Of a DNA stretch of 64,000 nt, positions 6,961-34,900 are shown in pieces (the first letter of the stretch is position 1; each line of letters starts with the position of its first letter). The notes under the pieces are model-generated. The model searched no databases and was not told where the DNA came from. It saw nothing but the letters and a program-made list of their open reading frames with translations. Origin of the DNA: a virus; the IMG/VR virus record IMGVR_UViG_3300045131_002121, positions 1-64,000 of that record; one strand, given 5' to 3'. Both the position numbers and the translations under genes were made by a program.

Positions 6961-7536
6961 GTGGCATCTCCGCACCGTTTGACAACCCCAGATGGGGCAG
7001 TTTACGATCTCCGCTGGGTGATCTCGTTCAAAGACGATCTCTCCAAGATCGCTGCGACTTTCTTTGGATCCCCGTACTCTCCGGTGATCTTTGATCGTAC
7101 TGCTTTCTTGGCTCAATGGGACGCCTCCCGTGCAGGTAACCCAGCGTTCCTGGGCTGCCCCGCGATAGGTGCTCTACCTGATCTCATCTTGGGACAGACC
7201 ACCCTCAATGTCCTCATGGTCACCCGGTTTGTGGACTACCCCGCCTTGGCGCAGGTCTACGCCTGGTTAGCACAGTCCGCGATGGCTGAGGACGCCCAGG
7301 TCCCCGTGGATGTTCCCATTCGGATTCCCCGTGCGACTTTCTTAGCCGCGTGGCCCAGTGGGTTGCCGTGGTGGAATCCAGGTGGGGGTTCCTCGTATTA
7401 CAACCTCGACTGGGTGACGTCCTGGAACCGGGAGACCACCGCGATGTCTCGCTTTGCTGATTCACCTGATGTCGTCATCGGACTCCCCAGGGATGCCCTG
7501 GAGACCGCGATGCAGGCATCGAAGACGAGGTCCTAA
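6961..7536 (+). CDS. Two-copy small-domain protein (local paralogue family)
   Basis: The start is a GTG preceded by ataggaatccat. The 191-residue product has an N-terminal unit YDLRWVISFKDD..DRTAFLAQWDA (about residues 15-55) and a C-terminal unit YYNLDWVTSW..GLPRDALETAMQA (about residues 143-187). Both resemble the single units encoded by the next two genes: Y-[DN]-L/V, an aromatic strand, a polar gap, a V/F strand, then an arginine/aspartate turn and an alanine-rich helix. This suggests tandem duplication of a small domain. Function is unknown. The gene ends where the next begins (7536). Confidence 0.6.
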   Translation: MASPHRLTTPDGAVYDLRWVISFKDDLSKIAATFFGSPYSPVIFDRTAFLAQWDASRAGNPAFLGCPAIGALPDLILGQTTLNVLMVTRFVDYPALAQVYAWLAQSAMAEDAQVPVDVPIRIPRATFLAAWPSGLPWWNPGGGSSYYNLDWVTSWNRETTAMSRFADSPDVVIGLPRDALETAMQASKTRS

Positions 7537-8369: not shown

Positions 8370-10922
8370 ATGACCACGCAATCCCTAGCAGCCTACAAGT
8401 TCGCAGCATCTTATGGACGCTTTTTACCTGAACTGAATAGACGCGAAATACCAAGTGAGAGTTTTGAACGTGTCATCGAAATGCACCGCACGAAATACAA
8501 AGGAGTTGATATCGAAGCCGAGTTGAGTTTCTGTCTGGAAGCCATGAAAGATGGCCTGGTCTTGGGCTCCCAGAGAGCACTTCAATTCGGCGGTTCCCCT
8601 ATCCTGCGCAAAGAGGCCAGAGCGTTCAATTGTTCGGGGTCCTATGCGGATCGCCCCCGGTTCTTCCAGGAATGCCTGTATCTCCTGCTCTGTGGTTGCG
8701 GCACCGGGTTCTCGGTGCAACGCCATCACGTCGCCAGGCTGCCCAAGTTAATCGCGGTGGATAAACACCAGATCAAGGTGTTCACGGTTGCCGACAGTGT
8801 TGAAGGCTGGGCTGATGCCCTCGGCGTTCTCCTGGCCTCCTATGGATGCCTGGGTAGCGGCATGAACGAGTTCGCCGAAGAAACAGCACCAGGGGATGAC
8901 TCCAAGGTGTCCTTCCAGCACCCCGGCTGCTTCGCCGATTACGTGGGCAGCCATGTCAGCTTTGATTACTCTCGCATCCGTAACCAGGGCTCGAGTCTGA
9001 GCACCGGTGCAGGCAAGGCTCCAGGACCTGGGCCTCTCTCGGCATCCCTGGAAAAGATTCGCGGGGTCCTCGATACCGCGTTGACCCGGTGCCATGGTGA
9101 GGACTGCCATCTCCGCCCCATCGATGTCTACGATATCATCATGCACGCCTCAGATGCTGTCCTCGCCGGTGGAGTCCGCCGTAGTGCCACGATTTGCTTG
9201 TTCAGTGTTGATGATCCCGAGATGATGAACGCGAAGACTGGGAACTGGATGCAGGACAACCCCCAGCGGGCGCGTTCTAATAACTCGGCGATGTTGATCC
9301 GTGGTGAGACCACCTGGGAAGCCTTCCATGACATCTTCATGCTGGCACGCCGCCAGTACGGGGAGCCCGGGTTCGTGTGGTCGGATAGCCCCGAGCTCAT
9401 GGTGAACCCCTGCGTGGAAACCGGGATGTACCCCGCGATCTCCTTCAAGGATCTCTACGAGATGAATGGGGTGCCTTCTGCAGAAGGAGGGGATTGCCCT
9501 GTGCAGCGGATATCTGAATACTCGGGATGGGCATTCTGCAACCTCTGTGAAGTCAATGCCAAGGCCTGCCGTACCGATAAGGACTGGGGGCGTGCGTGCA
9601 CCGCAGCGGCGATCCTGGGCACCCTCCAGGCCGGCTACACCAAGTTTGACTACCTCGGTAATGTCAGCGAGTGTATCGCGAAACGTGAAGCCCTCCTCGG
9701 GGTCTCCATGACTGGGATGATGGACAACCCCTCGCAGTCCTTTGATCCCAAGCGGCAACGTGACCTCGCCAAGCTCATCCTCGATGTCAACGCTGCGCTG
9801 GCACCCCGCCTGGGCATCCGACCGACAGCACGGGCTACCTGTGTTAAACCCGCGGGATCGACGTCATGCCTTCTCGGGACATCGAGTGGGATCCATGCCC
9901 AACACGCCAAGCGGTACTTCCGGAGAGCCCAGGCCAACGTCAACGAGGCCCCCTTCCAATACTTCAAGGTCCACAACCCCGATGCCGTTGAACGCTCGGT
10001 GTGGGAACCCAATGGGAACACCGCGGTGATCACGTTCTGCATCGAGGCCTCCGACGAAGCCCTGACGCGACGTGAGGTCAATGGGCTCAAGCAGCTCGAG
10101 TACGTCAAGCTCACCCAGGACAACTGGGTTGCCGCCGGCAGTGTTCCCGAGCGCGCCGTGAAGCCCTGGCTGCACCACAATGTCTCCAACACGATCACGA
10201 TTCGTCAGAACCAAGAGGAAGACGCCGCCCGTTACATCTACGATCACCGGGAGTCCTTCACAGGGGTCAGCATCCTGGGGACCTCAGGGGATCTCGATTA
10301 TCCCCAGGCCCCGTTCTGCGAGGTCCGTACCGAGAGCGAGATCCTGGAGCGCTATGGTCGCGGTGCCTTCTTTGCATCCGGCCTCATCGTCGATGGGCTC
10401 CACGCCTTTGGTAACAATCTCTGGTTGGCCTGCGATACCGTGATGGGACTCGGTGAAGCCTCGGTTCTCGCCAACGGGGTTCCGTATCCCGCGGATCCCA
10501 ACACGCTCCCCGATGCCATCCGTGAGGCCTACGAGCACGTCCACGCACTCAAGAAGGATTGGATCCGGCGTGCACGTAAGTTCGCTGAGAATTACTTTGG
10601 ATTCGACTCGGAGAAGGAAGTCGCGCTCAAGAAAAAACTTAATGTTGATAGTTCGGTCCCCCGGGCGGGTCGTTCGGTCCCCAAGTCGACTTCGCTGTCT
10701 AATCATTACGATGCACTGCATGATTTATACGCACAACGCGACGCCCTGCGGCAGATGACCTACTGCCTCAAGGAAGTCAACAACCTCCATCTCTGGGAGC
10801 GACTGACCAGGGGCTGGAGTGAAGTCGACTACTCCCTGATGGTTGAGGAACACGATGGCACCAAGGGGGCTCAACCCGAGATGGCCTGTGCCGGTGGAGC
10901 CTGCACCTTACAGCACGCCTGA
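8370..10922 (+). CDS. nrdJ: Adenosylcobalamin-dependent class II ribonucleotide reductase
   Basis: The 850-residue protein reduces ribonucleotides to deoxyribonucleotides using a cobalamin-generated thiyl radical, supplying precursors for phage DNA. The layout fits the monomeric Lactobacillus-type enzyme: FNCSGS (C88, one half of the active-site disulfide), GGVRRSAT near 267, NPCVE (N346, C348 thiyl cysteine, E350), FCNLCE (C390 and C393, partner cysteine region), KPAGSTS near 495, and a C-terminal CAGGAC (C840, C845) that shuttles reducing equivalents. The usual NPCGE glycine is valine here. It is about 110 residues longer than the Lactobacillus enzyme. No small subunit or activase gene is present nearby, as expected for class II. 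Activity needs host or scavenged B12. A strong terminator follows. Confidence 0.9.
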   Translation: MTTQSLAAYKFAASYGRFLPELNRREIPSESFERVIEMHRTKYKGVDIEAELSFCLEAMKDGLVLGSQRALQFGGSPILRKEARAFNCSGSYADRPRFFQECLYLLLCGCGTGFSVQRHHVARLPKLIAVDKHQIKVFTVADSVEGWADALGVLLASYGCLGSGMNEFAEETAPGDDSKVSFQHPGCFADYVGSHVSFDYSRIRNQGSSLSTGAGKAPGPGPLSASLEKIRGVLDTALTRCHGEDCHLRPIDVYDIIMHASDAVLAGGVRRSATICLFSVDDPEMMNAKTGNWMQDNPQRARSNNSAMLIRGETTWEAFHDIFMLARRQYGEPGFVWSDSPELMVNPCVETGMYPAISFKDLYEMNGVPSAEGGDCPVQRISEYSGWAFCNLCEVNAKACRTDKDWGRACTAAAILGTLQAGYTKFDYLGNVSECIAKREALLGVSMTGMMDNPSQSFDPKRQRDLAKLILDVNAALAPRLGIRPTARATCVKPAGSTSCLLGTSSGIHAQHAKRYFRRAQANVNEAPFQYFKVHNPDAVERSVWEPNGNTAVITFCIEASDEALTRREVNGLKQLEYVKLTQDNWVAAGSVPERAVKPWLHHNVSNTITIRQNQEEDAARYIYDHRESFTGVSILGTSGDLDYPQAPFCEVRTESEILERYGRGAFFASGLIVDGLHAFGNNLWLACDTVMGLGEASVLANGVPYPADPNTLPDAIREAYEHVHALKKDWIRRARKFAENYFGFDSEKEVALKKKLNVDSSVPRAGRSVPKSTSLSNHYDALHDLYAQRDALRQMTYCLKEVNNLHLWERLTRGWSEVDYSLMVEEHDGTKGAQPEMACAGGACTLQHA

Positions 10923-13600: not shown

Positions 13601-14061
13601 CACTTGATACATTCCTGGCTTCCAATCTTGTTAAAGTTTCTGCGGAGGCGGATTTGCTTGCCCAGCCCAAACGGGAGCCACTGGAAGTCCACACCCTGCC
13701 GCCCCCGAATCCCACTCCAGGAGTAGGCCTCGCGGAATCCCTGGGCATGGGGATGCCATGGAAGGGTGCCCTCATCGGTGGCCTTGGTTTAGGTGCCTAC
13801 AAATACCTGACTGCAAAGAAGGGTGACAAACTGCGGGATACCATGAAGGGGGCCATCACTGGCGCCCTTGGTGGTGCGGGTACCGAACTCGGCGCTGGTC
13901 TCGGTGGCGAGGTCGCCAGACGTCATGCTCGTTATGGTGAAGGCGGCCCCATGGCTACCACTGGTATCGCCGCAGGGGGCACCGCAGCTGGCGCCGGCCT
14001 CGGTCTGGGTTCCGCGTATCTCCTCAACAAGTTTTTGAGTCGAGATGGTGAGGATGAATAA
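13597..14061 (+). CDS. Glycine-zipper membrane-like protein with N-terminal K-x-S-A-E peptide
   Basis: The 154-residue protein begins with an N-terminal peptide ending LVKVSAE (K13-E17), shared in form with many head-module proteins. It then has two glycine/alanine-rich hydrophobic stretches (about 48-65 and 118-145) separated by a G-rich region (GALGGAGTELGAGLGGE). These glycine zippers suggest membrane insertion or helix oligomerisation, as in proteins that help DNA cross the host membrane. Overlaps on both sides (ATGA; TAATG) suggest coupled translation. Function is inferred only. Confidence 0.55.
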   Translation: MTLDTFLASNLVKVSAEADLLAQPKREPLEVHTLPPPNPTPGVGLAESLGMGMPWKGALIGGLGLGAYKYLTAKKGDKLRDTMKGAITGALGGAGTELGAGLGGEVARRHARYGEGGPMATTGIAAGGTAAGAGLGLGSAYLLNKFLSRDGEDE

Positions 14062-16631
14062 TGGCTACTCAGAAACCACTCTACTTTGATGGTCGCCAGC
14101 TCCGCAGGGCTTCCTCTACGAACCCTATTGCGGCGTCGGTCCTGGAATCCACTGTTGTCACCACCGATGGTCTCCACCCCTTCGTAGCCAATGTCGCGGG
14201 TGCAAAGGCTACCGAAGACGCCCACTTGACGACTCGCCTGGTCGTCGACCGCAGAATCGCGGATGGCTATTGGGGTGGCCCCGTTCAAGCCATCACGAAT
14301 ACACCTCCGGTATCCCCTGGTGCCGAGCAGCGCTGGATCACGGGTACACTCCCCACGGGGGACTGGTCTGGGAACCCCAATGCTTTTGCGGCATACCGCG
14401 ATGGTGTCTGGAAATTCACCTCAGCAGCTGAAGGCGTCTTCGTCTTCAACAGGGCGACGCACTCCTATGTCCACTACACGGGTTCGGCATGGGCACCCAT
14501 CCTAGGTACCGGTACGGTGACATCAGTGGGGCTCGCGCTCCCCGCTGAGTTCGACGTCACGGTCTCCCCGGTGACCGGTTCTGGAGATCTCACCGCGGGA
14601 TGGGCGGTTCAGGCCCCCGGGGTTGTCTTCGCGGGTCCCAGTGATCCCCTGGTAGACCCTGCAGTACCTGGGTTCAGACCTCTAGTTGAAACTGATATTC
14701 CCTTTTGTGCCCTCAAGGGGGACGTGGGGTCATCTGGGCTCACCATGACCTCTGCACGGCTCCTCGGCAGGATCTCCGATGATCCCGGTGCCATCGAGGA
14801 GATCTCGATTGGGGACGGTCTGAGTCTATCCGCAGGGCAACTGAGCTGCACTGTATCACCTGCGTTGGAAACTGGTCGCGTTGGGTTCGGGGGATCAGAC
14901 GACATTCTCACGGGGTCTATCTATCTAACCTATGTGAGTGATGGCGACACGGGCGGATTGGTTATCTCTAATACCACCGCATCGACCAGTACGACTACAG
15001 GAGCCCTTGTAGTCACTGGTGGTTTAGGTGTTGGTGGAACCAGCTTTTTTGGGGGTAGAGTTGATATTTCCTGTATTGGCTCGACACCCCCGGTTTTGAC
15101 CATTAATCAGAATAGTTACCTAGCCGCCGATGGTGGGGGTAACACCGTTTTACACGTCTTTGACCATGAAGACACCCTTCGTGGAAAGGGTATCAGGTAC
15201 ACTGGAGGTTTTGGTGCTACTCGTGCGACTGGCCGCGCTATTTATGTTGCTCCTTGGCTGACTGTATTTGTTTGCACTGGTATCACAACACCGCCGTCGC
15301 GGTACGATAGATACACTGTTAATGGTATCACTTATGCGATAACTACTGTAAATGGTTCTCTTGTATATGCAGTTCGACTGACCAGTAGCACAGCGCTCCC
15401 CCCGGCATCGGGTAAACTTACTCGTACGGTCGGATCCGGCGATGCCGAGATATTATACACTGAGGTTTCGCTGATGGAAACTGAAGCCGTGCAGGCATCA
15501 GTTATTATTCGGTCGAACGGTGCAATTTCATTTGGTAACATCTGGGAAAATTGGGGTAATGTATCTATTGGAACCCTGGCGCACCCAGGTTTAGACGCAG
15601 CATCTCGCGAGCAGAAAACACTTGGGGTCTATGAAACCACGCAGACAGGTGAGCCTGACGAGGGCCACCTGTCCGTTTACGGCACAATTCGTCTGCAAGG
15701 GATCCAAAGCAAGGATGTTGCCAACGGTATATTGCAGTACAATGCGACAAATAAGTTCCAGGGGTATTACAACGGACAATGGAACACGTTTCTGACAGGC
15801 ACTTTTTTTACAAATCGCGTTGCCTACGGCGGGGCGCTTGGAATAACCGATAGTGCAAACCTAACTTTTGATGGTGCAAATCTCAATGTTACAGGTACAG
15901 TAACAGCTATTTCCGCTGATCTTCGAGATGGGTTACAATTGATGGGTCGGGCTGGTGGAACAGGTTCATATCTCGGAACTTTTATACCAACTACGTTGAC
16001 AGAATCTCGCACATACACCATGCCGGATAAAGACGGCACTGTGGCGATGACGAGCGATATAGTTGCTCCGAGTCTTGCAGATACCCAGGTAGGGTTTGGT
16101 AGCGGAAGTGATCTTCTTACTGGTTCTGCAAATTTAACATACATTTCGACTCTGGCTACTGGTGGATTAACAATCTCAAATACTACTGCATCGACCAGCA
16201 CTACTACTGGTGCTCTTGTTGTTGCCGGAGGCCTCGGTGTCGGCGGTTCAGTCTATGCTGGCTCCGATGTCTCCGTAGGTGGAACTCTCATAATCAAGAA
16301 TGTTAATGAGGCCGTGAACACTATTGGCAACACAGGCACGGGCACGATTACAGTCAACTGTCTGACCGCAAACCGGGTTACCATGACGGTGACAGGAAAC
16401 GTAACCCTTGCGTTCACGAATGTCCCCTCCGCGGGCACCGCGAAGACGATGGTTTTGCACATAACTAATGGGGCTGCATTCACATTTGCGTTCCCGGCTA
16501 ATACGCGGTGGTCAGGTGGTATCGCCCCTGTTCTCCGATCCTCGGGGCTGGACATCATAGGTCTGACCACGATTGATGGGGGAAACACTTGGGATGGAAT
16601 CCCGATGTCGTTGGATAGTAAGGTACCATGA
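14061..16631 (+). CDS. Tail fibre protein with DUF2793-like module and internal duplication
   Basis: The 856-residue protein has a DUF2793-like segment near residues 80-155 (RWITGTLPTGDW, AYRDGVWKFTS, SYVHYTGSAWAP), common near phage tail-fibre attachment regions. Two copies of a fibre repeat follow: VGFGGSDDILTGS to VVTGGLGVGG (14878-15036) and VGFGSGSDLLTGS to VVAGGLGVGG (16091-16249). Both include TASTSTTTGALVV, typical of trimeric fibre shafts. The distal half (from about 15050) is more A+T-rich and probably faces diversifying selection. No chaperone domain is evident. The role is host recognition at the tail tip. Confidence 0.8.
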   Translation: MATQKPLYFDGRQLRRASSTNPIAASVLESTVVTTDGLHPFVANVAGAKATEDAHLTTRLVVDRRIADGYWGGPVQAITNTPPVSPGAEQRWITGTLPTGDWSGNPNAFAAYRDGVWKFTSAAEGVFVFNRATHSYVHYTGSAWAPILGTGTVTSVGLALPAEFDVTVSPVTGSGDLTAGWAVQAPGVVFAGPSDPLVDPAVPGFRPLVETDIPFCALKGDVGSSGLTMTSARLLGRISDDPGAIEEISIGDGLSLSAGQLSCTVSPALETGRVGFGGSDDILTGSIYLTYVSDGDTGGLVISNTTASTSTTTGALVVTGGLGVGGTSFFGGRVDISCIGSTPPVLTINQNSYLAADGGGNTVLHVFDHEDTLRGKGIRYTGGFGATRATGRAIYVAPWLTVFVCTGITTPPSRYDRYTVNGITYAITTVNGSLVYAVRLTSSTALPPASGKLTRTVGSGDAEILYTEVSLMETEAVQASVIIRSNGAISFGNIWENWGNVSIGTLAHPGLDAASREQKTLGVYETTQTGEPDEGHLSVYGTIRLQGIQSKDVANGILQYNATNKFQGYYNGQWNTFLTGTFFTNRVAYGGALGITDSANLTFDGANLNVTGTVTAISADLRDGLQLMGRAGGTGSYLGTFIPTTLTESRTYTMPDKDGTVAMTSDIVAPSLADTQVGFGSGSDLLTGSANLTYISTLATGGLTISNTTASTSTTTGALVVAGGLGVGGSVYAGSDVSVGGTLIIKNVNEAVNTIGNTGTGTITVNCLTANRVTMTVTGNVTLAFTNVPSAGTAKTMVLHITNGAAFTFAFPANTRWSGGIAPVLRSSGLDIIGLTTIDGGNTWDGIPMSLDSKVP

Positions 16632-16632
16632 C

Positions 16633-19600
16633 ATGCCGATAGGCGGTGGAAACATCATGTACCCCTCGGCAGCGTACGCACCAATTACGCTGTATTGGGA
16701 TACCAATGGTACCAGCATCGGCGCCACAAACTCGACGACGGCCACGGGGACCTGGGGGACCAATAACTTTTGGAGCACGGATCCCGCAGGACTCGTGGCT
16801 ACGAGGGCCTGGATACCCGGTGGTGACGCCGTGTTCTCCGCTGGTAGTAACGCCACCGGGGTCTACACGGTGACAGTATCGGGTTTGCAGCCTGTAAGAA
16901 ACATCACTGTTCGCAATGGCACGATTACGTTCACGACCGGCACACTACAAATCGCGCCGAGTGCTCAATGGTATAACGAGACATCAAATCTGGTTTCGGT
17001 TACCGCTGGGATCCGGTACACGAACACACTCACCCTGAAAAGTGGGGCATGGGTGATCACGAGTGCGGCGAGTGTGGGCACCGCAGGGGTTACCTTAGAT
17101 GGCAATGGAGTCTGGGTACGGTCAGGTCACGCCAACTCTTTTGGAACAGGTATTCTAACTCTGAAGGACGGAAAATTGAGTTCCGACTCTGGTGCTGCCC
17201 GCGCCTTTACCAGTGGTCTCCTGATCTCGGCTTCTATCACTCTTGGAGATTTAACTAACACCGGGGCACTCTCCTTTGGGTCCAGCCAATCCATCACGAA
17301 TCCAGCGGTGATCACTGCCTTGAGCAATGTCACCTTTGGCACCAACATGACTTGGGATGGCAACGCCATCACTTTTAGAGGCCCCGGAGTAGTCACACAG
17401 ACCTCGACTATCCCGGCGGCGTCGCATACAGGATCTATAACTATTGGCGATGGCACCACTTTCTCCGGCAACAACGTCGGGGGAATCGTGTCGGTGGGCA
17501 GTCAGAATAATTTGGGAAGTGGTGAGGTCACCGTCAATTATGGGGGCAGTCTGCTCTTTAGTGGGCTCTTCACGCCAACGAACATTATCACGGTCAACGC
17601 CGGAGGCACGCTCAATGCACTCTCCAATGTTCATGGGGTTTACGGCAGCGCCCCTGGTACACTCATTGTGCGCAGCATGGCCACTCTGGCTGAGGTGTCC
17701 AACACGGAGTTCCGGGTCACGGGCAACACATTCCCCGCCGCTGGTGTCCTGATAGGGGCCAACAATGGTAACAGATTGTTTATCGGCGACCGTGATGGGA
17801 GCTACATAAATTCGCAACCCTATCCCATACTCACTGGTACGATGGTCTTCAATCAGGTCGGTCCTAATGCTGCTAATGGTTTCTTTTTTGGTCCACTCAA
17901 CACCGGCACTGCTCCGACAATTGCGTTCAATAATTCGGTTCCTTTGGTGAGCGGCATCAATTTCAATGGCACCACTTTGGGTGGCGATCTCACCCTCGCC
18001 GGCAGTGGCAACACCGGTCTGACGGGCCTGGTGCCCACTGGTGCGGCGGGTGTGTTGGGGACAGTCAGTGGCAATCATGCGGTTACCGTGAACATGGCTC
18101 CAACTGGGGCGGTGTCGCTCACCGATCATGCCACGACCAAGTTGACCACGTTGACCGTCAATTCAGGCACCGCCATCGTCAGTACCGATCTGGGTAGCAA
18201 TACCGCACAACTCAATGGCGGCGGCATCCGCATGGGCACCGCCATCAGTTCGGCCATCAACGTCGGCGCCAATGGCGGCGTGCTCGAAACCGCTTCGGCC
18301 TTGAGTTACACCGGCAATCTGACGGCAACCGCAGGAGCATCCAACCTTGTCCTCCGCAGTGCAGGCGGCGCCCTGACGATTGCGACCGGCACGAATACCG
18401 GCCTTAACGCTGGGATCACCCTCGCCACCGCCGGAACGCCCAGGAGCGTTTATTTCAATGGGACGGCTACCCAACTCCCCAACGCCGCTTACAACATCAC
18501 CATCCCCGCCGGTATCTCCTTCGGCGGCACGGCAGTCAATACCAGCGCCTACACCAACAAGGGTCGCTTCGTCCTCCAAAGCGGTACAACCGACGCGGTC
18601 TATGACATCGACGCCCACGACACCTCGCCCAATCTGTCGGACACAGGTCTGGACAAGGATGTCTGGATCGGTTTGTCAGGTACAGCCCTGGCCGCCAGCG
18701 GGTACACGCTTCGCACCACTGGGAGTTACCAGAACGATTACCGCGTCGTCCCCATCGCTACCACCACCCAGAATAACACCGTTTTCACCGGCGCGGGTAA
18801 GAACCTGATCGTTTCCACAGGTGTCGTGCCCACCGACGTCAATTCCAGCGCCACCGACGTCCTGGGCAGTGGCTTCGCGCTAACCATCACCGCCGCCCAG
18901 AACTACACCGGCTCGACCACTGTCCAGGGCACCGTCAAGAACGCCCTGATGGGCGGCGGGGTGAGTGGGCCGACACTGGGGATTGGGGCGCTCGGTGACT
19001 TGTCGGGTACGACCGGCATCACACTGGACAAGTCAGCTACGATGATCACCAGCGGCGGCCCGGCCAACTACGGCCGCATCACCGCCGCCAATGTGCCCAT
19101 CACTGTCAAGGGCGGCGCGATGTTGACGGATGGTTCTCTCAACAACAACGAAAACATCGGTGTAACCGATCGCATCGTCACATCTGCCGACCTGACCCTC
19201 GGCGGCGACACCGGCGGCGGCGCATTCCGCATGGCGTTCCCGGTATCGGGCATCCATGCCCAGACGCTCGACGCCCTTACCGTGAACGCTGGTTATAGCG
19301 CCATAACCAGCATCAACTCCGGCAGTACAGCGAACCTGACCTTCAGCGGCGGGGCCAAGGTGACCCGCAGTACCGGCGGCGTGCTTGCCATCGCGACCGT
19401 CACCAATTACAACATCGCCTTCACCGCCGCCCCCAATGCCACCGGCATGGTCTCCGGTGGCACGTACCCCATCCTTATCGGTGTGGTCAGAGGGCCGAGT
19501 GTGGGTGGTGGGATTCAACCGACCGAATGGGTGGCCGCAGGCGCAGGTGGTCTGGCCTCCACGACCTATGTCAACAACGACTATAGTTCGGCCAACAATA

Positions 19601-21864
19601 ACGTAGATGCTACCGCCAGTGCCAATATCGCCGCAGGCAGCACGATTAACTCGTTGCGGTCCATTGCTACCGCCACGCTCACCCTCGCTGGCAATCTGAC
19701 TATCAATTCTGGTGGTATCCTAATGGACCCCGGGGCCGGCAATAAAACGTACAGCATCACCGGCGGGACGCTTCGTTCCGGTGTTGATGAATTGATCATC
19801 TTCGGTAACTATGGGGCTGGAAATGCTCTGACCATCAGTTCTCAGATCACCGGTGCAAACCCGCAGAACATCACGTTGGCCGGCGACAATACTCGCACCA
19901 CGGTCACCCTCTCCAACGCCAGCAACTCGGTTGGCAACATCTACATCTATGGCGGCACGTTGATTTCCAGCGTCGCCGGGGCACTTACTACCGGCAGTAC
20001 CGACACGATCTATATGTTCGGCGGCTTTCTCAGTTTTCCCAACAGCACGACGCAGGACTACGCCGGCCGCAAACTCGTCGTCGGCCCAGCCGGCAGCACT
20101 TACATCGACGGGGGTACAGCAGCGGTGAGTTCGCTAGGCGGTGCGGTCACGCTCAACGGCAACCTGAACGTCACGGGTTTGGGCAACAAGACTCTCTCCG
20201 GCAACATTGGCACCGCACTCGGCATCGAGGGTGGTGGGCAGGGCACGATCACAGCCCAGACCAATGCCGGGCGACTCACCCTCAGCGGCAACAACCAATA
20301 CTGGACCGGCGGCCTGAGGGTTGGCAACGGCATGCAGGTACGTCTGAATCACGCCAATGCCGCTGGCAGCGGTCCCCTCGTCAACCACGGGGCCATCGGC
20401 ATCATCGAGTTCACCAGTAACTTCGGCACGAGTCTGGCCAACGATGTCATCGGCTCGGTTAGTACATCCGAGACCCTCATCAGTAACGCGAAGACCGACG
20501 CAGCGGTAACCCTGAGTGGTCGGATCTATTCCGTCGGCGGCCTGACCTTCCAGGGCTACGACAACGCAGGTGCCGTCAGCGAAACCGTCCTATCCGGCAC
20601 CCTGTCCATCTCTGGCATCCCCGACATCTATTCTTACGGCGATACCTCCAACCTACAGCGCTTCGTCAATGGCCAGGGCGGCATCAACTCAGGCATCACC
20701 AAGTACCAGACCACCACGGCGTTGACCTATGGCACCGCTGGTTTCCTGGCCTATGCGGGTGGCACCACGACGGCGGTCGAAAACGGCGCCGAGGGCTATG
20801 TCCGGTTTAGTGGCGCCAACAGTTTCATCCCCGGTGCCGTCGGACCCGGATACCTCGCAGCCCTCCGCAAGGGGGGTGCCAGCGCTTTGAACTACGGCTA
20901 CCTACTCACCGCAGGCAGCACCTACAGGCTTCCCCAAGGAAAATCCTTTGTCCTCGGCACCCTGGGCTCCGGCACCGCCCAGGTCGGCACCCTGGGCGCC
21001 ACGGGTTCTGGAACCGCCAACCTGGATGGTGGCACCAAACATGAGGCCAGCACCGGCCAACTCCTCGCCGGTCTCTACGGCGGCGACATCAATATCCACG
21101 GCAACGCCAGCGGGGATACCGGGAGTCTCAAACTCCTGACCCGGGACGCCGACACCACCCTGGTCCTGGGCAATACAAGCCAAGTCGTGTTCACCCCAAC
21201 CTGGGGCGACAGCGGTGGCCAGTCCTGCATGACATTGATGCGCCACCGCAGTGGCAACACCACGCTGCGCAAAACTGGTCTGGGTACCCTGGTAGTCAAG
21301 AACACTGCCTATAACCAGGTCAGTGGAGTCGATGCCCGTGGTACCTTTACCTGGCAAGTCGATGCTGGAACCCTGCGGTATGATCAGGTTGATACCGGCA
21401 CCGACGCCGATTATTTGGGTTTCAACGTCAATAGCACTGCAACCCTGGCTGGATCGGGAACGATCAAGGCAAGTGTATCCGTGGTCTCCGGTACTCTCAA
21501 CCCAGGCAGTGCGACGAGCCCAGCAGCGTTGACCATGAAGTCACTCACGCTGAACGACTCCAGTGCGGTAGTCGCCCTTGATCTCGCCGGGGATACCGCG
21601 GGGACCCAGTATGACCAGCTCGTGATCCCAAGCGGAGGTGATGGTGTTTTCCTGAACAATGCCACGCTTGCCATTGTATTGAGCTATTCTCCTGCTGTAG
21701 GTAAAGTATTTACCATTATTGACAGGCAGTCCGCCGGGGCCGTCACCGGGGTGTTCAATGGGCTCGCCGAGGGTGCCACTGTTGCGAGCACGGGGATCAC
21801 GCGTAATTTCACCATATCATACGTTGGCGGCGACGGGAATGATGTCACACTAACCGCGCAATAA
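16633..21864 (+). CDS. Giant autotransporter-associated beta-strand repeat protein (putative tail spike)
   Basis: The start at 16633 is chosen because it directly follows the tail-fibre stop (overlapping ATGACATG); 16657 is an alternative. The 1743-residue protein is almost entirely short beta-strand repeats rich in G, T, N and S, such as LTLSGNNQYWTGGLRV and LTITAAQNYTGSTTV. These match autotransporter passenger-associated strand repeats (PATR) that fold as beta helices. The C-terminus (AVVALDLAGDTAGTQYDQL, FTIIDRQSAGAVTG, ISYVGGDGNDVTLTAQ) is the standard ending of planctomycete/verrucomicrobial surface proteins. No signal peptide, outer-membrane barrel or anchor is seen. Placed directly after a fibre gene, it is probably a tail spike. 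An origin by transfer from a bacterial surface protein is inferred. Confidence 0.75.
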   Translation: MPIGGGNIMYPSAAYAPITLYWDTNGTSIGATNSTTATGTWGTNNFWSTDPAGLVATRAWIPGGDAVFSAGSNATGVYTVTVSGLQPVRNITVRNGTITFTTGTLQIAPSAQWYNETSNLVSVTAGIRYTNTLTLKSGAWVITSAASVGTAGVTLDGNGVWVRSGHANSFGTGILTLKDGKLSSDSGAARAFTSGLLISASITLGDLTNTGALSFGSSQSITNPAVITALSNVTFGTNMTWDGNAITFRGPGVVTQTSTIPAASHTGSITIGDGTTFSGNNVGGIVSVGSQNNLGSGEVTVNYGGSLLFSGLFTPTNIITVNAGGTLNALSNVHGVYGSAPGTLIVRSMATLAEVSNTEFRVTGNTFPAAGVLIGANNGNRLFIGDRDGSYINSQPYPILTGTMVFNQVGPNAANGFFFGPLNTGTAPTIAFNNSVPLVSGINFNGTTLGGDLTLAGSGNTGLTGLVPTGAAGVLGTVSGNHAVTVNMAPTGAVSLTDHATTKLTTLTVNSGTAIVSTDLGSNTAQLNGGGIRMGTAISSAINVGANGGVLETASALSYTGNLTATAGASNLVLRSAGGALTIATGTNTGLNAGITLATAGTPRSVYFNGTATQLPNAAYNITIPAGISFGGTAVNTSAYTNKGRFVLQSGTTDAVYDIDAHDTSPNLSDTGLDKDVWIGLSGTALAASGYTLRTTGSYQNDYRVVPIATTTQNNTVFTGAGKNLIVSTGVVPTDVNSSATDVLGSGFALTITAAQNYTGSTTVQGTVKNALMGGGVSGPTLGIGALGDLSGTTGITLDKSATMITSGGPANYGRITAANVPITVKGGAMLTDGSLNNNENIGVTDRIVTSADLTLGGDTGGGAFRMAFPVSGIHAQTLDALTVNAGYSAITSINSGSTANLTFSGGAKVTRSTGGVLAIATVTNYNIAFTAAPNATGMVSGGTYPILIGVVRGPSVGGGIQPTEWVAAGAGGLASTTYVNNDYSSANNNVDATASANIAAGSTINSLRSIATATLTLAGNLTINSGGILMDPGAGNKTYSITGGTLRSGVDELIIFGNYGAGNALTISSQITGANPQNITLAGDNTRTTVTLSNASNSVGNIYIYGGTLISSVAGALTTGSTDTIYMFGGFLSFPNSTTQDYAGRKLVVGPAGSTYIDGGTAAVSSLGGAVTLNGNLNVTGLGNKTLSGNIGTALGIEGGGQGTITAQTNAGRLTLSGNNQYWTGGLRVGNGMQVRLNHANAAGSGPLVNHGAIGIIEFTSNFGTSLANDVIGSVSTSETLISNAKTDAAVTLSGRIYSVGGLTFQGYDNAGAVSETVLSGTLSISGIPDIYSYGDTSNLQRFVNGQGGINSGITKYQTTTALTYGTAGFLAYAGGTTTAVENGAEGYVRFSGANSFIPGAVGPGYLAALRKGGASALNYGYLLTAGSTYRLPQGKSFVLGTLGSGTAQVGTLGATGSGTANLDGGTKHEASTGQLLAGLYGGDINIHGNASGDTGSLKLLTRDADTTLVLGNTSQVVFTPTWGDSGGQSCMTLMRHRSGNTTLRKTGLGTLVVKNTAYNQVSGVDARGTFTWQVDAGTLRYDQVDTGTDADYLGFNVNSTATLAGSGTIKASVSVVSGTLNPGSATSPAALTMKSLTLNDSSAVVALDLAGDTAGTQYDQLVIPSGGDGVFLNNATLAIVLSYSPAVGKVFTIIDRQSAGAVTGVFNGLAEGATVASTGITRNFTISYVGGDGNDVTLTAQ

Positions 21865-21880
21865 CGAAAGAGAGATAGCC

Positions 21881-22465
21881 ATGCCCTACAAGATACCTAA
21901 ATATACCCCAAACGTGGAACCCGGGGAAAAGCGGCGGCGCATCTGGCGCAACGAGAATGAGAATCCGCTGTCGGGTACTCCCTATGCACGGATGCACGAA
22001 GAAGAGGCGGTCCTCGTCGAGGATGACGACGGCAACCTCGTCGAGCGCTCATTTGGCAATCGCCCACCACCCCTGACGCATGTCCCCAAGGACCCCAACG
22101 AAGTCGTCGAACTCAGGAGTCTCGTGGATGACACCTTGCTCGGGCAGACCACGCTAGGCATGGTTCATACCATGATCTACTCCCTGGGCCGTCACATGCA
22201 GAAACTCCGCGATATCGCGGAGACCGCACGTATCAAGGCAGAGGAAGTCGCCGCGGCCACGGAGGCCGCACGTCTCGCCCGTGTAGCCGCCGACAATGCC
22301 TTATGTGATGCCGGCCGCCTCGCCGATTTCGCCGCTGCGCTGCCTGCAGGTGAAGAGAAGGTCGCCGCTGAACAGATAGCATTGGATGCCGCTGCAGCAG
22401 CTGCGCTTCTGGTCGCCGAAGCCGACAGGCTGGATGCCGTTCTCGCCGCGCTCATCGCATCCTAG
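21881..22465 (+). CDS. Hypothetical helical protein after the tail spike
   Basis: The 194-residue product has a charged N-terminal half (with EEEAVLVEDDDGN near residues 41-53). A long alanine-rich helical C-terminal half (about 90-194) has heptad-like spacing and is likely coiled coil. The start has gaaagagag upstream. It could be a fibre-associated or trimerisation protein given its position after the spike, but no family is recognised. Confidence 0.6.
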   Translation: MPYKIPKYTPNVEPGEKRRRIWRNENENPLSGTPYARMHEEEAVLVEDDDGNLVERSFGNRPPPLTHVPKDPNEVVELRSLVDDTLLGQTTLGMVHTMIYSLGRHMQKLRDIAETARIKAEEVAAATEAARLARVAADNALCDAGRLADFAAALPAGEEKVAAEQIALDAAAAAALLVAEADRLDAVLAALIAS

Positions 22466-22545
22466 TACATCGGATGAACCCGCGTGGAGATGTCGTGCCA
22501 GGCGGGTAGGTTGCTCTCTGGATGGCTGCCATCAGAATCCTCATT

Positions 22546-22573
22546 ACTCACCTGCTCGCAGCAGGAGGTGAGT
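22546..22573 (+). other. Stem-loop in intergenic leader
   Basis: ACTCACC and GGTGAGT pair around an inner TGC-TCGCA-GCA stem with a small bulge. It lies 26 bases before the terminator-like hairpin at 22586-22606. The two together look like an alternating leader structure upstream of the 22619 gene. No open reading frame for a leader peptide is convincing. Confidence 0.4.
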
Positions 22574-22585
22574 ACACCCACCCAT

Positions 22586-22606
22586 GCCTGCGTAGTCAGG
22601 CTTTTT
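22586..22606 (+). terminator. Terminator-like hairpin just upstream of a ribosome-binding site
   Basis: GCCTG-CGTAGT-CAGGC is followed directly by TTTTT, the minimal form of an intrinsic terminator. The aaggaga ribosome-binding site and ATG (22619) of the next gene follow within a few bases. Transcription of that gene must therefore read through or be attenuated here. Confidence 0.55.
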
Positions 22607-22618
22607 CAAGGAGATTCC

Positions 22619-23014
22619 ATGAAGATTTCAAACCGCGGCATCCTCGAGCTTCGTCAGGCCCTGATCGCTCTCGATGGACTCCCAACCCCGACGTCTCTTG
22701 AGAACAGGAACGCGCAGACGTATTTGAAACCATATGACTTCACGGGAACCGTGCGTTTCAGAATTGGTAAGACACTGAATGCACTTAAACCAATAGCGGA
22801 AGCCATTGAAAAGGCGGGCGATGAAGTCACCCGGAAGTATGCTGTGGATAACATGATTCCGGGGCCAATGGTGAGTGCGTACACCGTTGAGCGCACCGAA
22901 CTCATGGATGTCGAGAATGAAATCGACATTCCCAAATTGACTGAAGCCGATCTCAAACTCGACGTCAATGCGATCCCCGGCAGCGTCCTCAGCATTTTGT
23001 CCGTTATGATGTGA
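22619..23014 (+). CDS. Hypothetical protein, 131 aa
   Basis: The start at 22619 is chosen for its strong ribosome-binding site (aaggagattcc). An in-frame codon at 22484 would place the coding region across two hairpins. The protein is predicted to be mostly helical: an N-terminal helix (ILELRQALIALDG), a middle helix (ALKPIAEAIEKAGDEVTRKYA), and a short beta-like tail. No family is recognised. It is probably cytoplasmic. Confidence 0.65.
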   Translation: MKISNRGILELRQALIALDGLPTPTSLENRNAQTYLKPYDFTGTVRFRIGKTLNALKPIAEAIEKAGDEVTRKYAVDNMIPGPMVSAYTVERTELMDVENEIDIPKLTEADLKLDVNAIPGSVLSILSVMM

Positions 23015-23045
23015 TCTCATCGCGTGGTCCACGCAGGAGCCCAAG

Positions 23046-23867
23046 ATGCCTATTGTCGGTGATGCCAAGAAAGTTCGGAACTCCATGGAAGACACCTACG
23101 GCAGTAAGGAAAAGGCCGAACGCGTGTTTTATGCGACTGCGAATAAGCAGAAGCGTGACCACAAGAACTGGAAGAAGGAGGCCTGGGAGCTCGGCCTTGG
23201 AAAGGTGGCTGTGGAGATCCTCCGTGGAGGTGAAGGTGACGGGATCGCCGCTGATCAACTCGATCCCCAGGCACTTGCCAAGGGAATGAAAGAAGAGGGG
23301 GAGCACACATCCAATCTGGCCCTGCGCAAAGAGATCGCCACTGATCACCTCGCCAAGGATCGCAAGTATTACGATAAGCTGGAAAAGATGGAGAAGAAGG
23401 CGGTTGCACCACCTCCATCGACTCAGCTTCCAGTGGCTAAGCTCCCAGGCCCAGGGACAGGTGCAACTAGGCCACCGATCCAGAACAGGCCGGTGACATC
23501 AACCACGCAGCTTCCCCAGCAACCCCCTGCGCAAAAAGGCGGCGGCCTCCAACTGATCCCTAATAATGGACCCTGTGATCAAGTTGTACCACCTCAGAAT
23601 AGATCGAAGACTTTGAAGACTTCGGTGGCCGGTGGGGTCCCCGGGGGTAAGGCAAGTGTTACGAGCCCAATTGGAGCCCACGCGGCATCGACATCGATGA
23701 CCACTCCGGTATCGCCTCAAATAGGCTCAGTGGCTCAGCCATTGAAGTCCCCGGCGAGTCCTGGGTTCTCAGATGACCTCAGTGCATCGCAACCCACCCA
23801 GGTGAAGACATCAGTTGAACTCCGCAGACTCGGCGCCTATGCGATCCGGTATCTCGGAGGCATCTGA
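23046..23867 (+). CDS. Phage structural-module protein with DUF5661-like segment
   Basis: Residues about 18-50 (YGSKEKAERVFYATANKQK) resemble a short helical module found in many phage capsid-associated proteins. Residues about 78-115 (GMKEEGEHTSNL, EIATDHLAKD, YYDKLEKME) match the DUF5661 pattern. The remaining ~150 residues are Pro/Ser/Thr/Gln-rich and probably disordered, ending in a short helix. The start of the next gene overlaps its last base. A role in head assembly or packaging is likely by company, but the activity of DUF5661 is unknown. Confidence 0.65.
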   Translation: MPIVGDAKKVRNSMEDTYGSKEKAERVFYATANKQKRDHKNWKKEAWELGLGKVAVEILRGGEGDGIAADQLDPQALAKGMKEEGEHTSNLALRKEIATDHLAKDRKYYDKLEKMEKKAVAPPPSTQLPVAKLPGPGTGATRPPIQNRPVTSTTQLPQQPPAQKGGGLQLIPNNGPCDQVVPPQNRSKTLKTSVAGGVPGGKASVTSPIGAHAASTSMTTPVSPQIGSVAQPLKSPASPGFSDDLSASQPTQVKTSVELRRLGAYAIRYLGGI

Positions 23868-25954: not shown

Positions 25955-27054
25955 GTCCATCTAAAATCATGCTTTTCTACCTGACTCGCAAAGTCGCGGC
26001 TTCCAGGATATTTAACCCCATAGTCATGGGGTCCACTATAGGTGTAGGGGCTGGGGTGGGTGCTCACGCCGCTGGTGAAAATTTACCTGCAGCGATTAGT
26101 GATGCGGTCACACTTGGTATGATTGGTGGTTCCGCATTCAGTAGAGGCACTAAACGTAAGCTCTTTGGTGGAGACGCCGGGCAGGCCCGACGAGATCTCC
26201 AGGCAGGCAATCTTGCTAACTCCTCGGTCTGGAAACACAACCCGGTGACTGGAAAGCGCGAGTTCACCTTTTTCGATGATGAGCTAAACGCACAACGCTC
26301 CGTAGCACACGACTCACCGGGGGTGATCGATGTACTCAAGGATAAGTCTTCCGCGATCACCAACCGCGCGATTATGAGAGACCTCGTGGCCAATAAACTA
26401 GGTCTAACCGCACTTACCGCTGGTGCACGTGGTGCAGTCGAGCTGGCAGGCGTCACTGGCGACATCAAGGCTGTCACTGGGGAGGCCAAGAATCAGCTCA
26501 CTGGTGATAAAGGTTTGCTTGCAGACACCTCGGCCAAAGTCAGAAACGTGACTAACCGCGCTGATAAAGCAGTTGGTAATCTTGAGAGAGGGGTTGATAG
26601 CGCTGTAAAGAATACTGAACAAGCTGGGAAGGACATAGTCTCGGTAACTGGTAACGCTGCGGCGGCATCCAAGTCACTCCCCGACATACTGACGAACACC
26701 AACAAGGCGATTGATAATCTAGGTGCAGTAGGACCCGCAGCTGCTGCGCTGCCAACAGCAATTGACTCCCTTGGGAAAAACGTCAATAAGGGGTTACAGT
26801 CGACCGCAGGTAGCATGGACTCCCTGGCCAAATCAACTGAGAGGGTAACTAACTTCTTAACAGATCCAAAGAATTATGCTATTGCTGGTGCCGGGATAGC
26901 CACCCTTGGGTTAGGGTATATCCTGTACAAGGCGTTGACAGATAAGGAAGACGAGGCTCCGACCCAAAAGGCCCCGCGTGCACCACGTAGCGCGGGTCCG
27001 CGTACCAAGTATGCCCCCGCAGATCACTCACACCCCGAATTTAAGCCGGCATGA
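25951..27054 (+). CDS. Putative internal virion/membrane protein with long coiled coil
   Basis: The 367-residue product begins with a short peptide ending TRKVAAS (K14-S18), the recurring N-terminal motif of this module. A glycine-rich hydrophobic segment (about 25-60) follows, then a long Ala/Asn/Thr-rich helical region (about 180-305) resembling a coiled coil. Next are a transmembrane segment (YAIAGAGIATLGLGYILY, about 309-326) and a Pro/Arg-rich tail. Overlaps with both neighbours suggest coupled translation. It may be an injected or tape-like protein; the length of the coiled coil alone does not make it the tape measure. Confidence 0.55.
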   Translation: MSPSKIMLFYLTRKVAASRIFNPIVMGSTIGVGAGVGAHAAGENLPAAISDAVTLGMIGGSAFSRGTKRKLFGGDAGQARRDLQAGNLANSSVWKHNPVTGKREFTFFDDELNAQRSVAHDSPGVIDVLKDKSSAITNRAIMRDLVANKLGLTALTAGARGAVELAGVTGDIKAVTGEAKNQLTGDKGLLADTSAKVRNVTNRADKAVGNLERGVDSAVKNTEQAGKDIVSVTGNAAAASKSLPDILTNTNKAIDNLGAVGPAAAALPTAIDSLGKNVNKGLQSTAGSMDSLAKSTERVTNFLTDPKNYAIAGAGIATLGLGYILYKALTDKEDEAPTQKAPRAPRSAGPRTKYAPADHSHPEFKPA

Positions 27055-27914
27055 TGGCGTCTGGCATGTTCGGAGTCGTCGATGTCGTCGACGTCCACGG
27101 TGCCCGGCAGCTCCGAATCAATGGGCAGGTCCAGGGAGCCTCATTTCTGGAGCCCCCATCTGAACACGGGGGTCCCGGGGTTGTCTCGGCGTCCCCGTAC
27201 ACCGCGGGCTGGTTGGCCGCCGCGGTGATGAACCACAACGGCAGAGGCCTCATGGTGGGCTTGGGTAGTGGGGCCGGTGCCATCACGGTACTCGCCAACT
27301 TCCCTGGAGTCTGTCTCGATGTCGTCGAGATCGATCCCGTCGCGGTCCACATGTGCAAGCAAGGATTCCCGGAGGTCAACGCCGCCATTGAATCCGGCCG
27401 ACTCCGTGTTTTCACCGCTGACGCCCTCGCCCTGATCCCACTCATCTCGAGGTGCCCCCGGGATAGGTACCACTACGATTTCATTCTTCACGACGCCTAT
27501 GATGGCAAATCACTGATCACCGGGGATCAAGTCGACTTCTTCAAGTCCTGTGCAGCGGTTACTCCGAACATCTGGATCAACATCATTGGGCGCCCCAACA
27601 TTGATCCCATGAAGACTTTGCTTCAGGATCTCGGCACCGCTGGGGTCGCCCCTCACAGTCTCTTCTTCGCTGACCACACCTTGTTGCAGCCCTTTGATAC
27701 CAACACTGCGGGGAACCACAACTGGATAGTCTCGACGCAGGAGACAAACCCAGAGCTCCTCGATTCATTTACCCCGCATGCCGACACCGAGGGGGAAACC
27801 CCGGCGGCGCAGCGGAATCTCCATGGGGTCCGTGTGCTCTGGGAACGTGTTTTACAGACCGAGATCTCGGGTCCCGAGCTGGACGCCTATGTCGCAGGGC
27901 TTGACGCTCAGTGA
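27051..27914 (+). CDS. Spermidine-synthase-like Rossmann protein
   Basis: The 287-residue protein carries a class I methyltransferase/polyamine-synthase fold. GLGSGAGAI (about 75-83) is the nucleotide-binding loop, VVEIDP (about 95-100) the acidic residue that binds the ribose, and YDFILHDAYDG (about 143-153) the next motif, matching the D-A-(Y/F)-D segment of spermidine synthases. It could transfer aminopropyl groups to putrescine or be a derived methyltransferase. An AGTCTC-N7-GAGAC element lies in its 3' part (27728-27745). It is the only obvious enzyme between structural genes here. Substrate is unproven. Confidence 0.65.
   Translation: MMASGMFGVVDVVDVHGARQLRINGQVQGASFLEPPSEHGGPGVVSASPYTAGWLAAAVMNHNGRGLMVGLGSGAGAITVLANFPGVCLDVVEIDPVAVHMCKQGFPEVNAAIESGRLRVFTADALALIPLISRCPRDRYHYDFILHDAYDGKSLITGDQVDFFKSCAAVTPNIWINIIGRPNIDPMKTLLQDLGTAGVAPHSLFFADHTLLQPFDTNTAGNHNWIVSTQETNPELLDSFTPHADTEGETPAAQRNLHGVRVLWERVLQTEISGPELDAYVAGLDAQ
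27728..27745. repeat. AGTCTC-N7-GAGAC element, copy 3
   Basis: AGTCTC-GACGCAG-GAGAC lies inside the spermidine-synthase-like gene; the outermost base pair is lost (A instead of T). Confidence 0.55.
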
Positions 27915-31959: not shown

Positions 31960-34900
31960 AACCCAAGGCGGAGATCAAGCGCGTCAAGAATCGACGCGCT
32001 CATTTTCCTATTGCTGAGCTCCGCAACAATACACCCAATTTCTTTGGGCATGGCAAGACACGTAAACTCGCCGCGCACTCCAGGAACCCGCATCACGACG
32101 AGGACGACGAAGACGAGAAGTCTGATACCTGGATCTGGTTAGCCGCCATTGGTGGTCTCGGCGCCGCAGGCTATCTCTGGATCAAGAACTACCCAGATAA
32201 GGCTCGAGAAGTCCTGACCTCGATAGGGGCCATGAGGATCCCTGGGCTCAGCGATCTCGTGGATACCATTGCGGGGGGTAAGACTCCGAATCCCAAACAA
32301 GAGGAGACCGTGAAGTCTGCGGCCCAGGAGATGTTGCCAAGCCTACCAGTGGTATCCGATAAGTTGTCGCCAGGTCTCAAGCTGGAATACACCGCACACC
32401 TTGCAGATGATGCCGACGCGAAAGATGGCGAGTTCAAGTTCTGGGAAGCTCCGCCTGCTCCAACCGGCGACCCCGCCAAGGACACCGCGGCTGCCCAGGA
32501 GTGGGTTGGGCGCAGGTACTGGGCCGCGTTGACCTATGAAGGCGGCAAGGAGAGTGGGTTGTCACGGGACCAAATCATACGGAACTATGACGCCACTGTT
32601 GGCAAGGCAGGTGAGTCGTATTCCCGAAAGGCCATAGAGGAGACCACACGTCGAGTGGTCAATACGTCTATAGCATTCAACGAGTATCGCGCATCTGGGT
32701 TACCCCCATTACTTTTTAACGTGGATCCAAAGTTGGCGGGAACCCGCGAGGGTTATGAGCCCGGACCCCAGGCCATCCAGTCTGCGCAGGACAGCATCGG
32801 TAAGGTTGATAAGGCTGGTAAGCCGTCGACTGACATTGATCTTCTCCTTATCAGTTCTGCGCTCACGGCCTCAGCGGAATCCCTGAAGGCAAGAAGTCAG
32901 CCCTCGAACATGGCCAGAGTTGCCCAGCAGGAAATGGAGAGGGCCACAGGGCTTGGGATTAACCCGACCACGGTACTCACCGCGTTCATGTCGGATCCTA
33001 GCTCGGCACCTGCCCAAGAGTTCGTCAAGAAACTTAGAGCAGGCTTTATTGCGGATGTCTCTAAGACAGTGGCCCAGCACAATGACACCGCGGGGGCCAT
33101 GTCTCCGTTTCGCGAGCAGTTCAAGAATGTACCCCAGGACACCGAATCAGTTCTGAAAGCTGGGGTGGATACTGGAGACCTATTACGAAGTGCTTTCAAC
33201 GCACATTCCACAATAATCGCGCAGATCCGGCTTCGAGATTCCCTGGCCATTGAACAGAAGTCTGACTATATCAAAGCACAGCTCACCGCGCTGCAAAATG
33301 GGTACACCCCCGCGAAAACGGTGGCTGCATCTCTCGTCGACGCAGTCGACGTCCCCGCTGAAATAATTTCACCGTTTCTGGGCTATATCAACATTGCTTT
33401 GTCCAAGGTACTGCCCACTGACTCCTCAATGAATAGATACGAGGACTCCCAGGCTGCTATCATCCAGGATGGGCCGGATGCCGTGGTCCGCAGGGATCTC
33501 AACAAGCTCACGGAGACCTATCAGCGTGCTGTTGCGCTTTATGCCGCCGGTGATCACGCAGGTGCCAAGAACCTCGCCAGGGCCAGTTTATCAGCTGAGG
33601 TCAAGAACGGGTCTGAGGTCGCCCAGTCCGCACTCAACTCCAATGCTGTCGGAGGTGCGGCTCAGAATACGACCTGGATGCTGTCGTCTATCGCATCGCG
33701 GAATGCAGGTTACCTGATAACCCCAGTCCTGTTATCAGGTGCCACGATCGTCGGGTTACATGGGCAATGGTCCAGTGATCCCGAGGCCTCCAAGAAACCA
33801 TTTTTAAGTTACGCAGGTGAGCACGCCGATACTATCGCGGAGAGTATTGGGAAATCGGCAAGCCAGTTCGCGACTCAGAAATACTACTGGAATAAATTGG
33901 ATCCCGCGCTGCGAGAGACCCTCTCGAAGTCTGCCCCCGGCGTTAGCCAGGCCACCCTATACCAGCGTTTTAAGGGGGCGGTAAAGGCAACTGGCGAAGC
34001 CGTGAAAAATCCAAAGAATATATTGACATACGGAAAGACCGTGTTGCAGGGGATGGGGAATCGTGCGTCAGTTCTTGGAAGGGTGGTGACCTCAGATGCC
34101 CTCGCTGGTGCCGCGGCGCCTTCCACAGCTGCGGCTGCGAACCAGTTTGGTAATGCACTCAGAGCTATCAGGTTGGGGGCCACCAACATAGTGGGAGCCG
34201 GGATTATTATGGAGGGTGTGGCCTCAGCGTGGGATGTCGGCAGGGTTTTGTATGCACGTGACAAATATGACGACGAACACATACAGGATATGGCACGGCT
34301 CGCGTTTGCCTATGAAGGCAAACAGGTAGGGCTGTTCGACTTTGTCACCCAGCCGGTCAATGCGGCAAAGGTATGGATGGCACGCGAGGCATATAAGGGC
34401 GAGAACCAGAGTCCACACGCTCTTGGTTATAGGAAGGGACTCGAGTGGGTGATGGAGGCCAAGCTGATCAAGTCCTCGACCGACTTTGCCAACAAAGCCG
34501 TTCTCGAAAATCCGTTGTTTTCCACACTTCCAGGTGATCTCCAGCTCCAGCTCGCCAGACGGGTTGGGAGTAACGTGTATGACGATGCACGTTCGAGTGT
34601 AGAACATCTATTTGATGAAACCAATTACATTCGCCCCGAGTTCCTGGAACCCGGTGGGCGGGTCTCCAAGATACTTGATAATAGTGTTGTCGAGGCATCG
34701 GGCTCAAACATGAAGCGAGGACCAACCCCAGAAGGCCTCGATAAATCTGTATGGGATCAACACTGGCAGCCCGCGGGAAACATGACGAACTTTCAGCGCA
34801 TCTTAGGTGACGAGGGGTTCAAGCAGGTCGTCGAGGCTACTGCAACAGTTACCAGGGCGAGACTACACGACACGATCAAGGATGCGTTTGAAACTCATCC

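What the first reader, a model, noticed from the sequence alone, without database searches (positions are those of the whole stretch)
16633..21864. Tail-spike-like protein built from bacterial autotransporter-associated repeats
The whole 1743-residue protein follows the pattern of planctomycete/verrucomicrobial surface proteins, down to the C-terminal GGDGNDVTLTA ending. It lacks a signal peptide, barrel or anchor and follows a tail-fibre gene directly. This suggests a captured host surface protein now used for attachment, possibly by mimicking self-association of the host's own adhesin.
Basis: partly seen in the sequence, partly recalled or inferred. Interest (0 to 1): 0.65.

Follow-up and report, generated by a model that had tools for sequence, protein, structure and literature searches.

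The report
Phage spike copying bacterial surface protein
A large bacteriophage carries, beside its tail-fibre gene, a 1743-residue protein that looks like the finished form of a surface protein of Verrucomicrobia-type bacteria, with its export signal and cell-wall sorting tail removed; the phage probably uses it as a swappable part for gripping host cells.

Summary
The open reading frame 16633-21864 is real and most likely a captured bacterial surface protein. Residues 18-110 form an N-domain found by profile in 24 of 241 Verrucomicrobiota genomes, 0 of 199 Planctomycetota and 0 of 249 Pseudomonadota. In 20 full-length Verrucomicrobiota proteins this domain directly follows a signal-peptide-like stretch; 18 of the 20 end in a PEP-CTERM tail. 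The phage protein replaces the signal peptide with 17 residues (MPIGGGNIMYPSAAYAP) and stops after the C-domain, where bacterial versions continue into PEP-CTERM. The C-domain is shared by surface proteins of many phyla; its model matches autotransporter passengers (Ssp, antigen 43). A phage with a portal about 96% identical keeps the gene in the same place, but its protein is 44% identical, with a diverged middle and conserved ends. Another, with a 99% identical capsid protein, lacks it. It is therefore a rapidly diverging, gain-or-loss cassette in the tail-fibre module, as expected of a host-recognition protein. Virion incorporation, receptor and self-association mimicry remain untested inferences.

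The parts
16633..21864 (+). Spike-like protein, 1743 aa, passenger-type beta-rich solenoid
   Evidence: orthologue of 1800 aa at the same place in phage G001
16633..16683 (+). 17-residue phage-specific N-terminal peptide MPIGGGNIMYPSAAYAP standing where bacterial homologues have the signal peptide; candidate virion-docking tag (inferred)
   Evidence: conserved start M-x-IG-x-GNI-x-YPS in G001; alignment with 20 Verrucomicrobiota proteins
16684..16962 (+). N-domain (residues 18-110), Verrucomicrobiota-type: YWDxNGxxxGA...TGTWG...W...W..G..AVFSAG..ATG.YTVTV
16963..17532 (+). First part of the solenoid (residues 111-300), 53-56% identical to the G001 orthologue
17533..21132 (+). Diverged middle of the solenoid (residues 301-1500; 31-52% identical per 100-residue bin, with indels), likely recognition surface (inferred)
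20257..20331 (+). Only recognisable PATR-like repeat, below the Pfam cut-off
21430..21861 (+). C-domain (residues 1600-1743), autotransporter-passenger-like C-terminal cap, 77% identical in G001
14061..16631 (+). Tail-fibre gene (DUF2793; PHROG tail-fibre families) directly upstream; its middle differs between related phages
21881..22465 (+). 194-aa gene following the spike in both phages (49% identical); its homologue follows the fibre directly in G460
22484..23867 (+). Two further variable genes of the module (176 and 273 aa; 51-58% identical in G001)
14690..23805 (+). Hypervariable host-recognition module: close DNA matching of related phages stops at about 14690-14703 and resumes at about 23805, with only patches of 68-75% identity between

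Best explanation
The gene encodes a virion adsorption protein (spike or fibre-tip adhesin) derived from the mature form of a Verrucomicrobiota-type exported surface protein. Steps shown: its N-domain and C-domain are homologous to the two ends of bacterial proteins that are exported by a signal peptide and carry a PEP-CTERM sorting tail; the phage form lacks both sorting elements, has a short conserved phage-specific N-terminal peptide, sits immediately behind the tail fibre, diverges fast in its middle, and is gained or lost as a cassette. Steps inferred: the protein is made in the cytoplasm during infection, folds as a single-chain right-handed beta-helix capped by the N-domain and nucleated by the passenger-like C-domain, docks to the fibre or baseplate through the 17-residue tag, and presents its variable solenoid to a surface component of the host.
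For: Bacterial homology at both ends (L142 and L140 match both ends); 18 of 20 homologues end in PEP-CTERM and all 20 have the N-domain straight after a signal-peptide-like stretch; neither element in the phage form. Same position in G001. Contrast of conservation: portal 96-97% and capsid protein 99% identical but spike 44%. Absent from G460, whose capsid protein is 99% identical, with the fibre followed directly by the next gene. C-terminal model (pLDDT 80, pTM 0.81) matches autotransporter Ssp and antigen 43 passengers, and the sequence profile agrees (1.8e-18 to 8e7f). Published precedent that such hypervariable phage islands hold host-recognition genes, including a tail fibre with a YadA-like adhesin domain (PMC3909814).
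Against: No proteomic or structural proof that it is in the virion. No known phage docking domain was found. The host is unknown. The N-terminal 500-residue model is weak (pLDDT 53) and has no significant structural match. Only two phages carry it among 2.9 million IMG/VR contigs as far as these scans reach and no cultured phage does.
Confidence: 0.62

Rival explanations
1. Same bacterial origin, but the protein works mainly by homotypic or matrix association: it sticks the virion to the like-shaped surface proteins or extracellular matrix of the host (Velcro-like), rather than by recognising an unrelated receptor.
For: Both ends imitate the host-type protein; structural matches of the C-part include the self-associating adhesin antigen 43; it is the mature form without sorting signals.
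Against: The middle diverges freely between two near-identical phages (31-42% identity in most bins) and no bacterial protein was found that matches the middle along its length (at most scattered local matches).
Confidence: 0.17
2. It is not a virion protein: it accumulates in the cell and is released at lysis, for instance as a decoy or matrix additive, or it blocks superinfection.
For: No known virion-attachment domain; no export signal.
Against: Position directly behind the fibre gene, variation together with the fibre module, and absence from the otherwise very similar module of G460.
Confidence: 0.1
3. It is a depolymerase-type tail spike that degrades host polysaccharide, with a passenger-like fold.
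For: Beta-helical tail spikes are commonly enzymes (general knowledge); the weak fold list for the N-part includes alginate lyases and tail spikes (none significant).
Against: No Pfam, NCBIfam or PHROG enzyme match; the significant matches of the C-part are autotransporter passengers (Ssp, antigen 43), and that part holds no recognised catalytic domain.
Confidence: 0.08
4. Convergence: an ordinary phage solenoid spike that resembles bacterial surface proteins by composition only.
For: Gly/Thr/Ala/Ser/Asn-rich composition; related phages have other solenoid-like proteins in the same modules.
Against: Position-specific homology of both end domains at about 40-54% identity with E-values of 1e-20 and below.
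Confidence: 0.03

Closest known systems
Verrucomicrobiota PEP-CTERM (exosortase-sorted) surface proteins with the YWDxNG N-domain
   Same: N-domain (about 33-50% identical) and, in L142 and L140, also the C-domain; long Gly/Thr/Asn-rich solenoid between
   Different: Phage protein has no signal peptide and no PEP-CTERM tail; instead a 17-residue N-terminal tag
Autotransporter (type Va) passenger domains with PATR repeats: Ssp, antigen 43, IcsA, pertactin
   Same: Fold and sequence profile of the last ~290 residues
   Different: No signal peptide, no beta-barrel; almost no recognisable PATR repeat
Pelagiphage tail fibre with a YadA-like adhesin domain (PMC3909814)
   Same: Bacterial adhesin domain used in a phage host-recognition protein within a hypervariable island
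   Different: There only one domain in a fibre; here a whole surface-protein architecture as a separate gene; YadA is a trimeric adhesin of another fold (general knowledge)
Phage tail-spike/receptor-binding cassettes
   Same: Position behind the fibre, hypervariability, presence/absence between close phages
   Different: No known spike head-binding or docking domain, no known enzyme domain

Membership tests
Type V autotransporter | Cleavable N-terminal signal peptide | tested here: not met
   No charged n-region or hydrophobic core in the first 45 residues; conserved start in G001
Type V autotransporter | C-terminal beta-barrel translocator | tested here: not met
   Protein ends at the passenger-like C-domain; no Pfam match
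Type V autotransporter | Beta-helical passenger with C-terminal cap region | tested here: met
   C-terminal model matches Ssp and antigen 43 (E 5.6e-4, 9.5e-4); profile to 8e7f 1.8e-18
PATR repeat family (PF12951) | Repeat score above the curated cut-off | tested here: not met
   One repeat at 18.2 bits, cut-off 27; none in hmmscan
PEP-CTERM surface proteins | C-terminal PEP motif, hydrophobic helix, basic end | tested here: not met
   Ends ...GGDGNDVTLTAQ*; tail present in 18 of 20 bacterial homologues
Verrucomicrobiota N-domain proteins | YWDxNG N-domain at the start of the mature protein | tested here: met
Phage receptor-binding protein / tail spike | Gene within the tail-fibre module, variable between close relatives | tested here: met
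Phage receptor-binding protein / tail spike | Known virion-attachment domain | tested here: not met
   No Pfam or PHROG match
Phage receptor-binding protein / tail spike | Present in virions and binds host | not testable with these tools
   Needs proteomics and binding assays
Phage receptor-binding protein / tail spike | Homotrimer | not testable with these tools
   Only single-chain prediction available; matched structures are single-chain passengers

The most novel reading that the evidence does not exclude
The phage wears a copy of the mature, exosortase-processed form of its host's own adhesin and uses like-with-like association with host surface proteins or matrix for adsorption, so that the end domains fix the host lineage and the middle fixes the strain.
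Probability: 0.17. Interest if true: 0.78.

Novelty: new variant of a known kind. Interest (0 to 1): 0.55.

Why it matters
Phages are known to borrow single adhesin domains, but here a whole surface-protein architecture appears to have been taken over, trimmed at both sorting signals, and turned into a swappable host-recognition part. It offers a sequence-based handle on the host of an uncultured group of large phages (Verrucomicrobiota) and a way to test whether virions can exploit the self-association of bacterial surface proteins.

Tried and rejected
Assembly chimera with a host contig: rejected, since the same gene sits in the same order in an independent contig, G001, and lacks sorting signals. 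Missed upstream signal peptide: the frame is open upstream with a start codon only to 16573, overlapping the fibre gene, and the conserved start is the ATG at 16633. Lineage from the C-domain tree: unresolved; the two phage sequences pair together (100/93) among mixed phyla, next to a Chloroflexota row. Full-length query in IMG/VR and in cultured phages: nothing; the full-length IMG/VR scan also missed G001, so that empty result is weak. N-domain mixed-profile scan of IMG/VR also missed the known G001 member, so its negative says nothing. Fold search of the N-terminal model: no significant match; C-model against viral structures: none significant. Host from capsid-protein homologues in genomes: 2 of 388 Verrucomicrobiota, 1 of 382 Planctomycetota, 0 of 388 Pseudomonadota: too few to decide. 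Papers on phage-borne PATR or autotransporter proteins: none found that settle it.

Full report
What is there. Frame 16633-21864 is open and encodes 1743 residues. The window is part of a 72,854-base virus record from IMG/VR that may be a fragment. It encodes RNA-polymerase-like subunits and a portal protein related to Salmonella phage Arash and Vibrio phages of about 187 kb, so it belongs to a group of large tailed phages. The gene starts one base after the stop codon of an 856-residue tail-fibre gene.

Phage relatives. One other IMG/VR contig, G001 (216 kb), encodes a full-length orthologue of 1800 residues at the same place: fibre, spike, 194-aa gene. Most other genes are 80-99% identical between the two phages (portal 96-97%, capsid protein 99%), but the spike is 44% identical. 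The capsid gene 61109-62047 was named from its very high conservation, not from a family match. Identity along the spike is 80% in residues 1-100, 53-56% in 101-300, mostly 31-42% in 301-1400, and 91% in the last 43 residues. A third phage, G460, has a 99% identical capsid protein and a 92% identical gene downstream of the module, but no spike at all: its fibre is followed directly by the homologue of 21881-22465. Close DNA matching of the two relatives stops near 14690-14703, inside the fibre gene, and resumes for good near 23805. The spike is thus a cassette in a hypervariable module. In marine phages such islands hold, among the genes with a known role, mainly host-recognition genes, including a fibre with a YadA-like domain (PMC3909814).

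Bacterial relatives. The C-terminal 144 residues match at least 208 stretches of bacterial genomes, 32-54% identical in most of the 77 loci kept, mostly Planctomycetota but many phyla. The N-domain profile (residues 1-146 of the two phages) matches 24 of 241 Verrucomicrobiota genomes (best E 3e-21), none of 199 Planctomycetota and none of 249 Pseudomonadota. In the 20 full-length Verrucomicrobiota proteins read here, the N-domain follows a signal-peptide-like stretch directly, and 18 end in a PEP-CTERM tail (signal peptides and tails judged by eye, no predictor was at hand). Two, L142 and L140, match the phage protein at both ends. PEP-CTERM proteins are thought to be sorted to the cell surface by exosortase, and some have been detected by mass spectrometry in Akkermansia (PMC4960237). 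In the phage protein the signal peptide is replaced by MPIGGGNIMYPSAAYAP, and the chain stops at GGDGNDVTLTAQ, where bacterial proteins such as L053 and L055 continue with VPEPG and a membrane tail. Bacteria to phage is the likelier direction, because the sorted form is common in bacteria and the phage form was seen in two phages only; the C-domain tree cannot settle it.

Structure. The C-terminal 294 residues are predicted as an all-beta fold with good confidence (pLDDT 80, pTM 0.81) and match the passengers of the autotransporters Ssp and antigen 43 (E 5.6e-4 and 9.5e-4). The sequence profile agrees: Ssp (8e7f) 1.8e-18, IcsA 3.6e-5, antigen 43 0.0022. The N-terminal 500 residues give a weak, beta-rich model without significant matches. 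Matched passengers are single chains, so a trimer is not indicated.

How it most likely works. Shown: origin of both end domains, loss of both sorting signals, location, rapid divergence, presence or absence between close phages. Inferred: incorporation in the virion through the N-terminal tag, and host binding by the variable solenoid. Self-association mimicry is possible but unproven. The host is unknown; the N-domain and a few distant capsid-protein homologues hint at Verrucomicrobiota.

Verdict. It is a new variant of a known kind: phage host-recognition proteins built from bacterial adhesin parts.

Noticed in passing
window 29413-30387 (inside portal gene 29104-31959): About 325 residues (104-428) inserted in the portal protein are absent from the 96-97% identical portal of phage G001, match phage ribonucleotide reductases that probably carry the same insert (tblastn), and match the Pfam intein splicing domain weakly: very likely an intein in a portal protein.
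   Followed up: partly
window 8370-10922, 39627-44153, 47981-51037: Ribonucleotide reductase and the two RNA-polymerase-like genes differ in length by about 290-470 residues from their otherwise 85-96% identical counterparts in G001 and/or G460, suggesting presence/absence of inteins or similar inserts.
   Followed up: partly
window 6961-7536: 191-aa frame matching only the C-terminus of an 1122-aa solenoid-like protein that is intact and 84% identical between G001 and G460: the window's phage seems to have lost about 930 residues of a second spike-like protein while keeping the spike studied here.
   Followed up: partly
L159 2691-3746 and 3849-5912 (phage G461): Two further solenoid-like proteins, starting TTTTFTGAIDNNWFTAGNWDNGVP and similar, in the fibre module of a more distant relative; by eye they resemble another kind of bacterial surface-protein start; no Pfam or PHROG family found.
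   Followed up: partly
window 16620-16635 and L003 3007-3024: Fibre stop and spike start nearly touch; G001 has CCC TGA at the fibre stop, a possible +1 slip site that would fuse fibre and spike. The window has CCA TGA C. Speculative, not tested.
   Followed up: no
window 31956-37700: 1914-residue gene after the portal gene that is only 34% identical in G001 although its neighbours are 86-96% identical; no family match.
   Followed up: no
window 27051-27914: Spermine/spermidine-synthase-like gene (just below the Pfam cut-off) within the structural gene region, 94% identical in G001.
   Followed up: no
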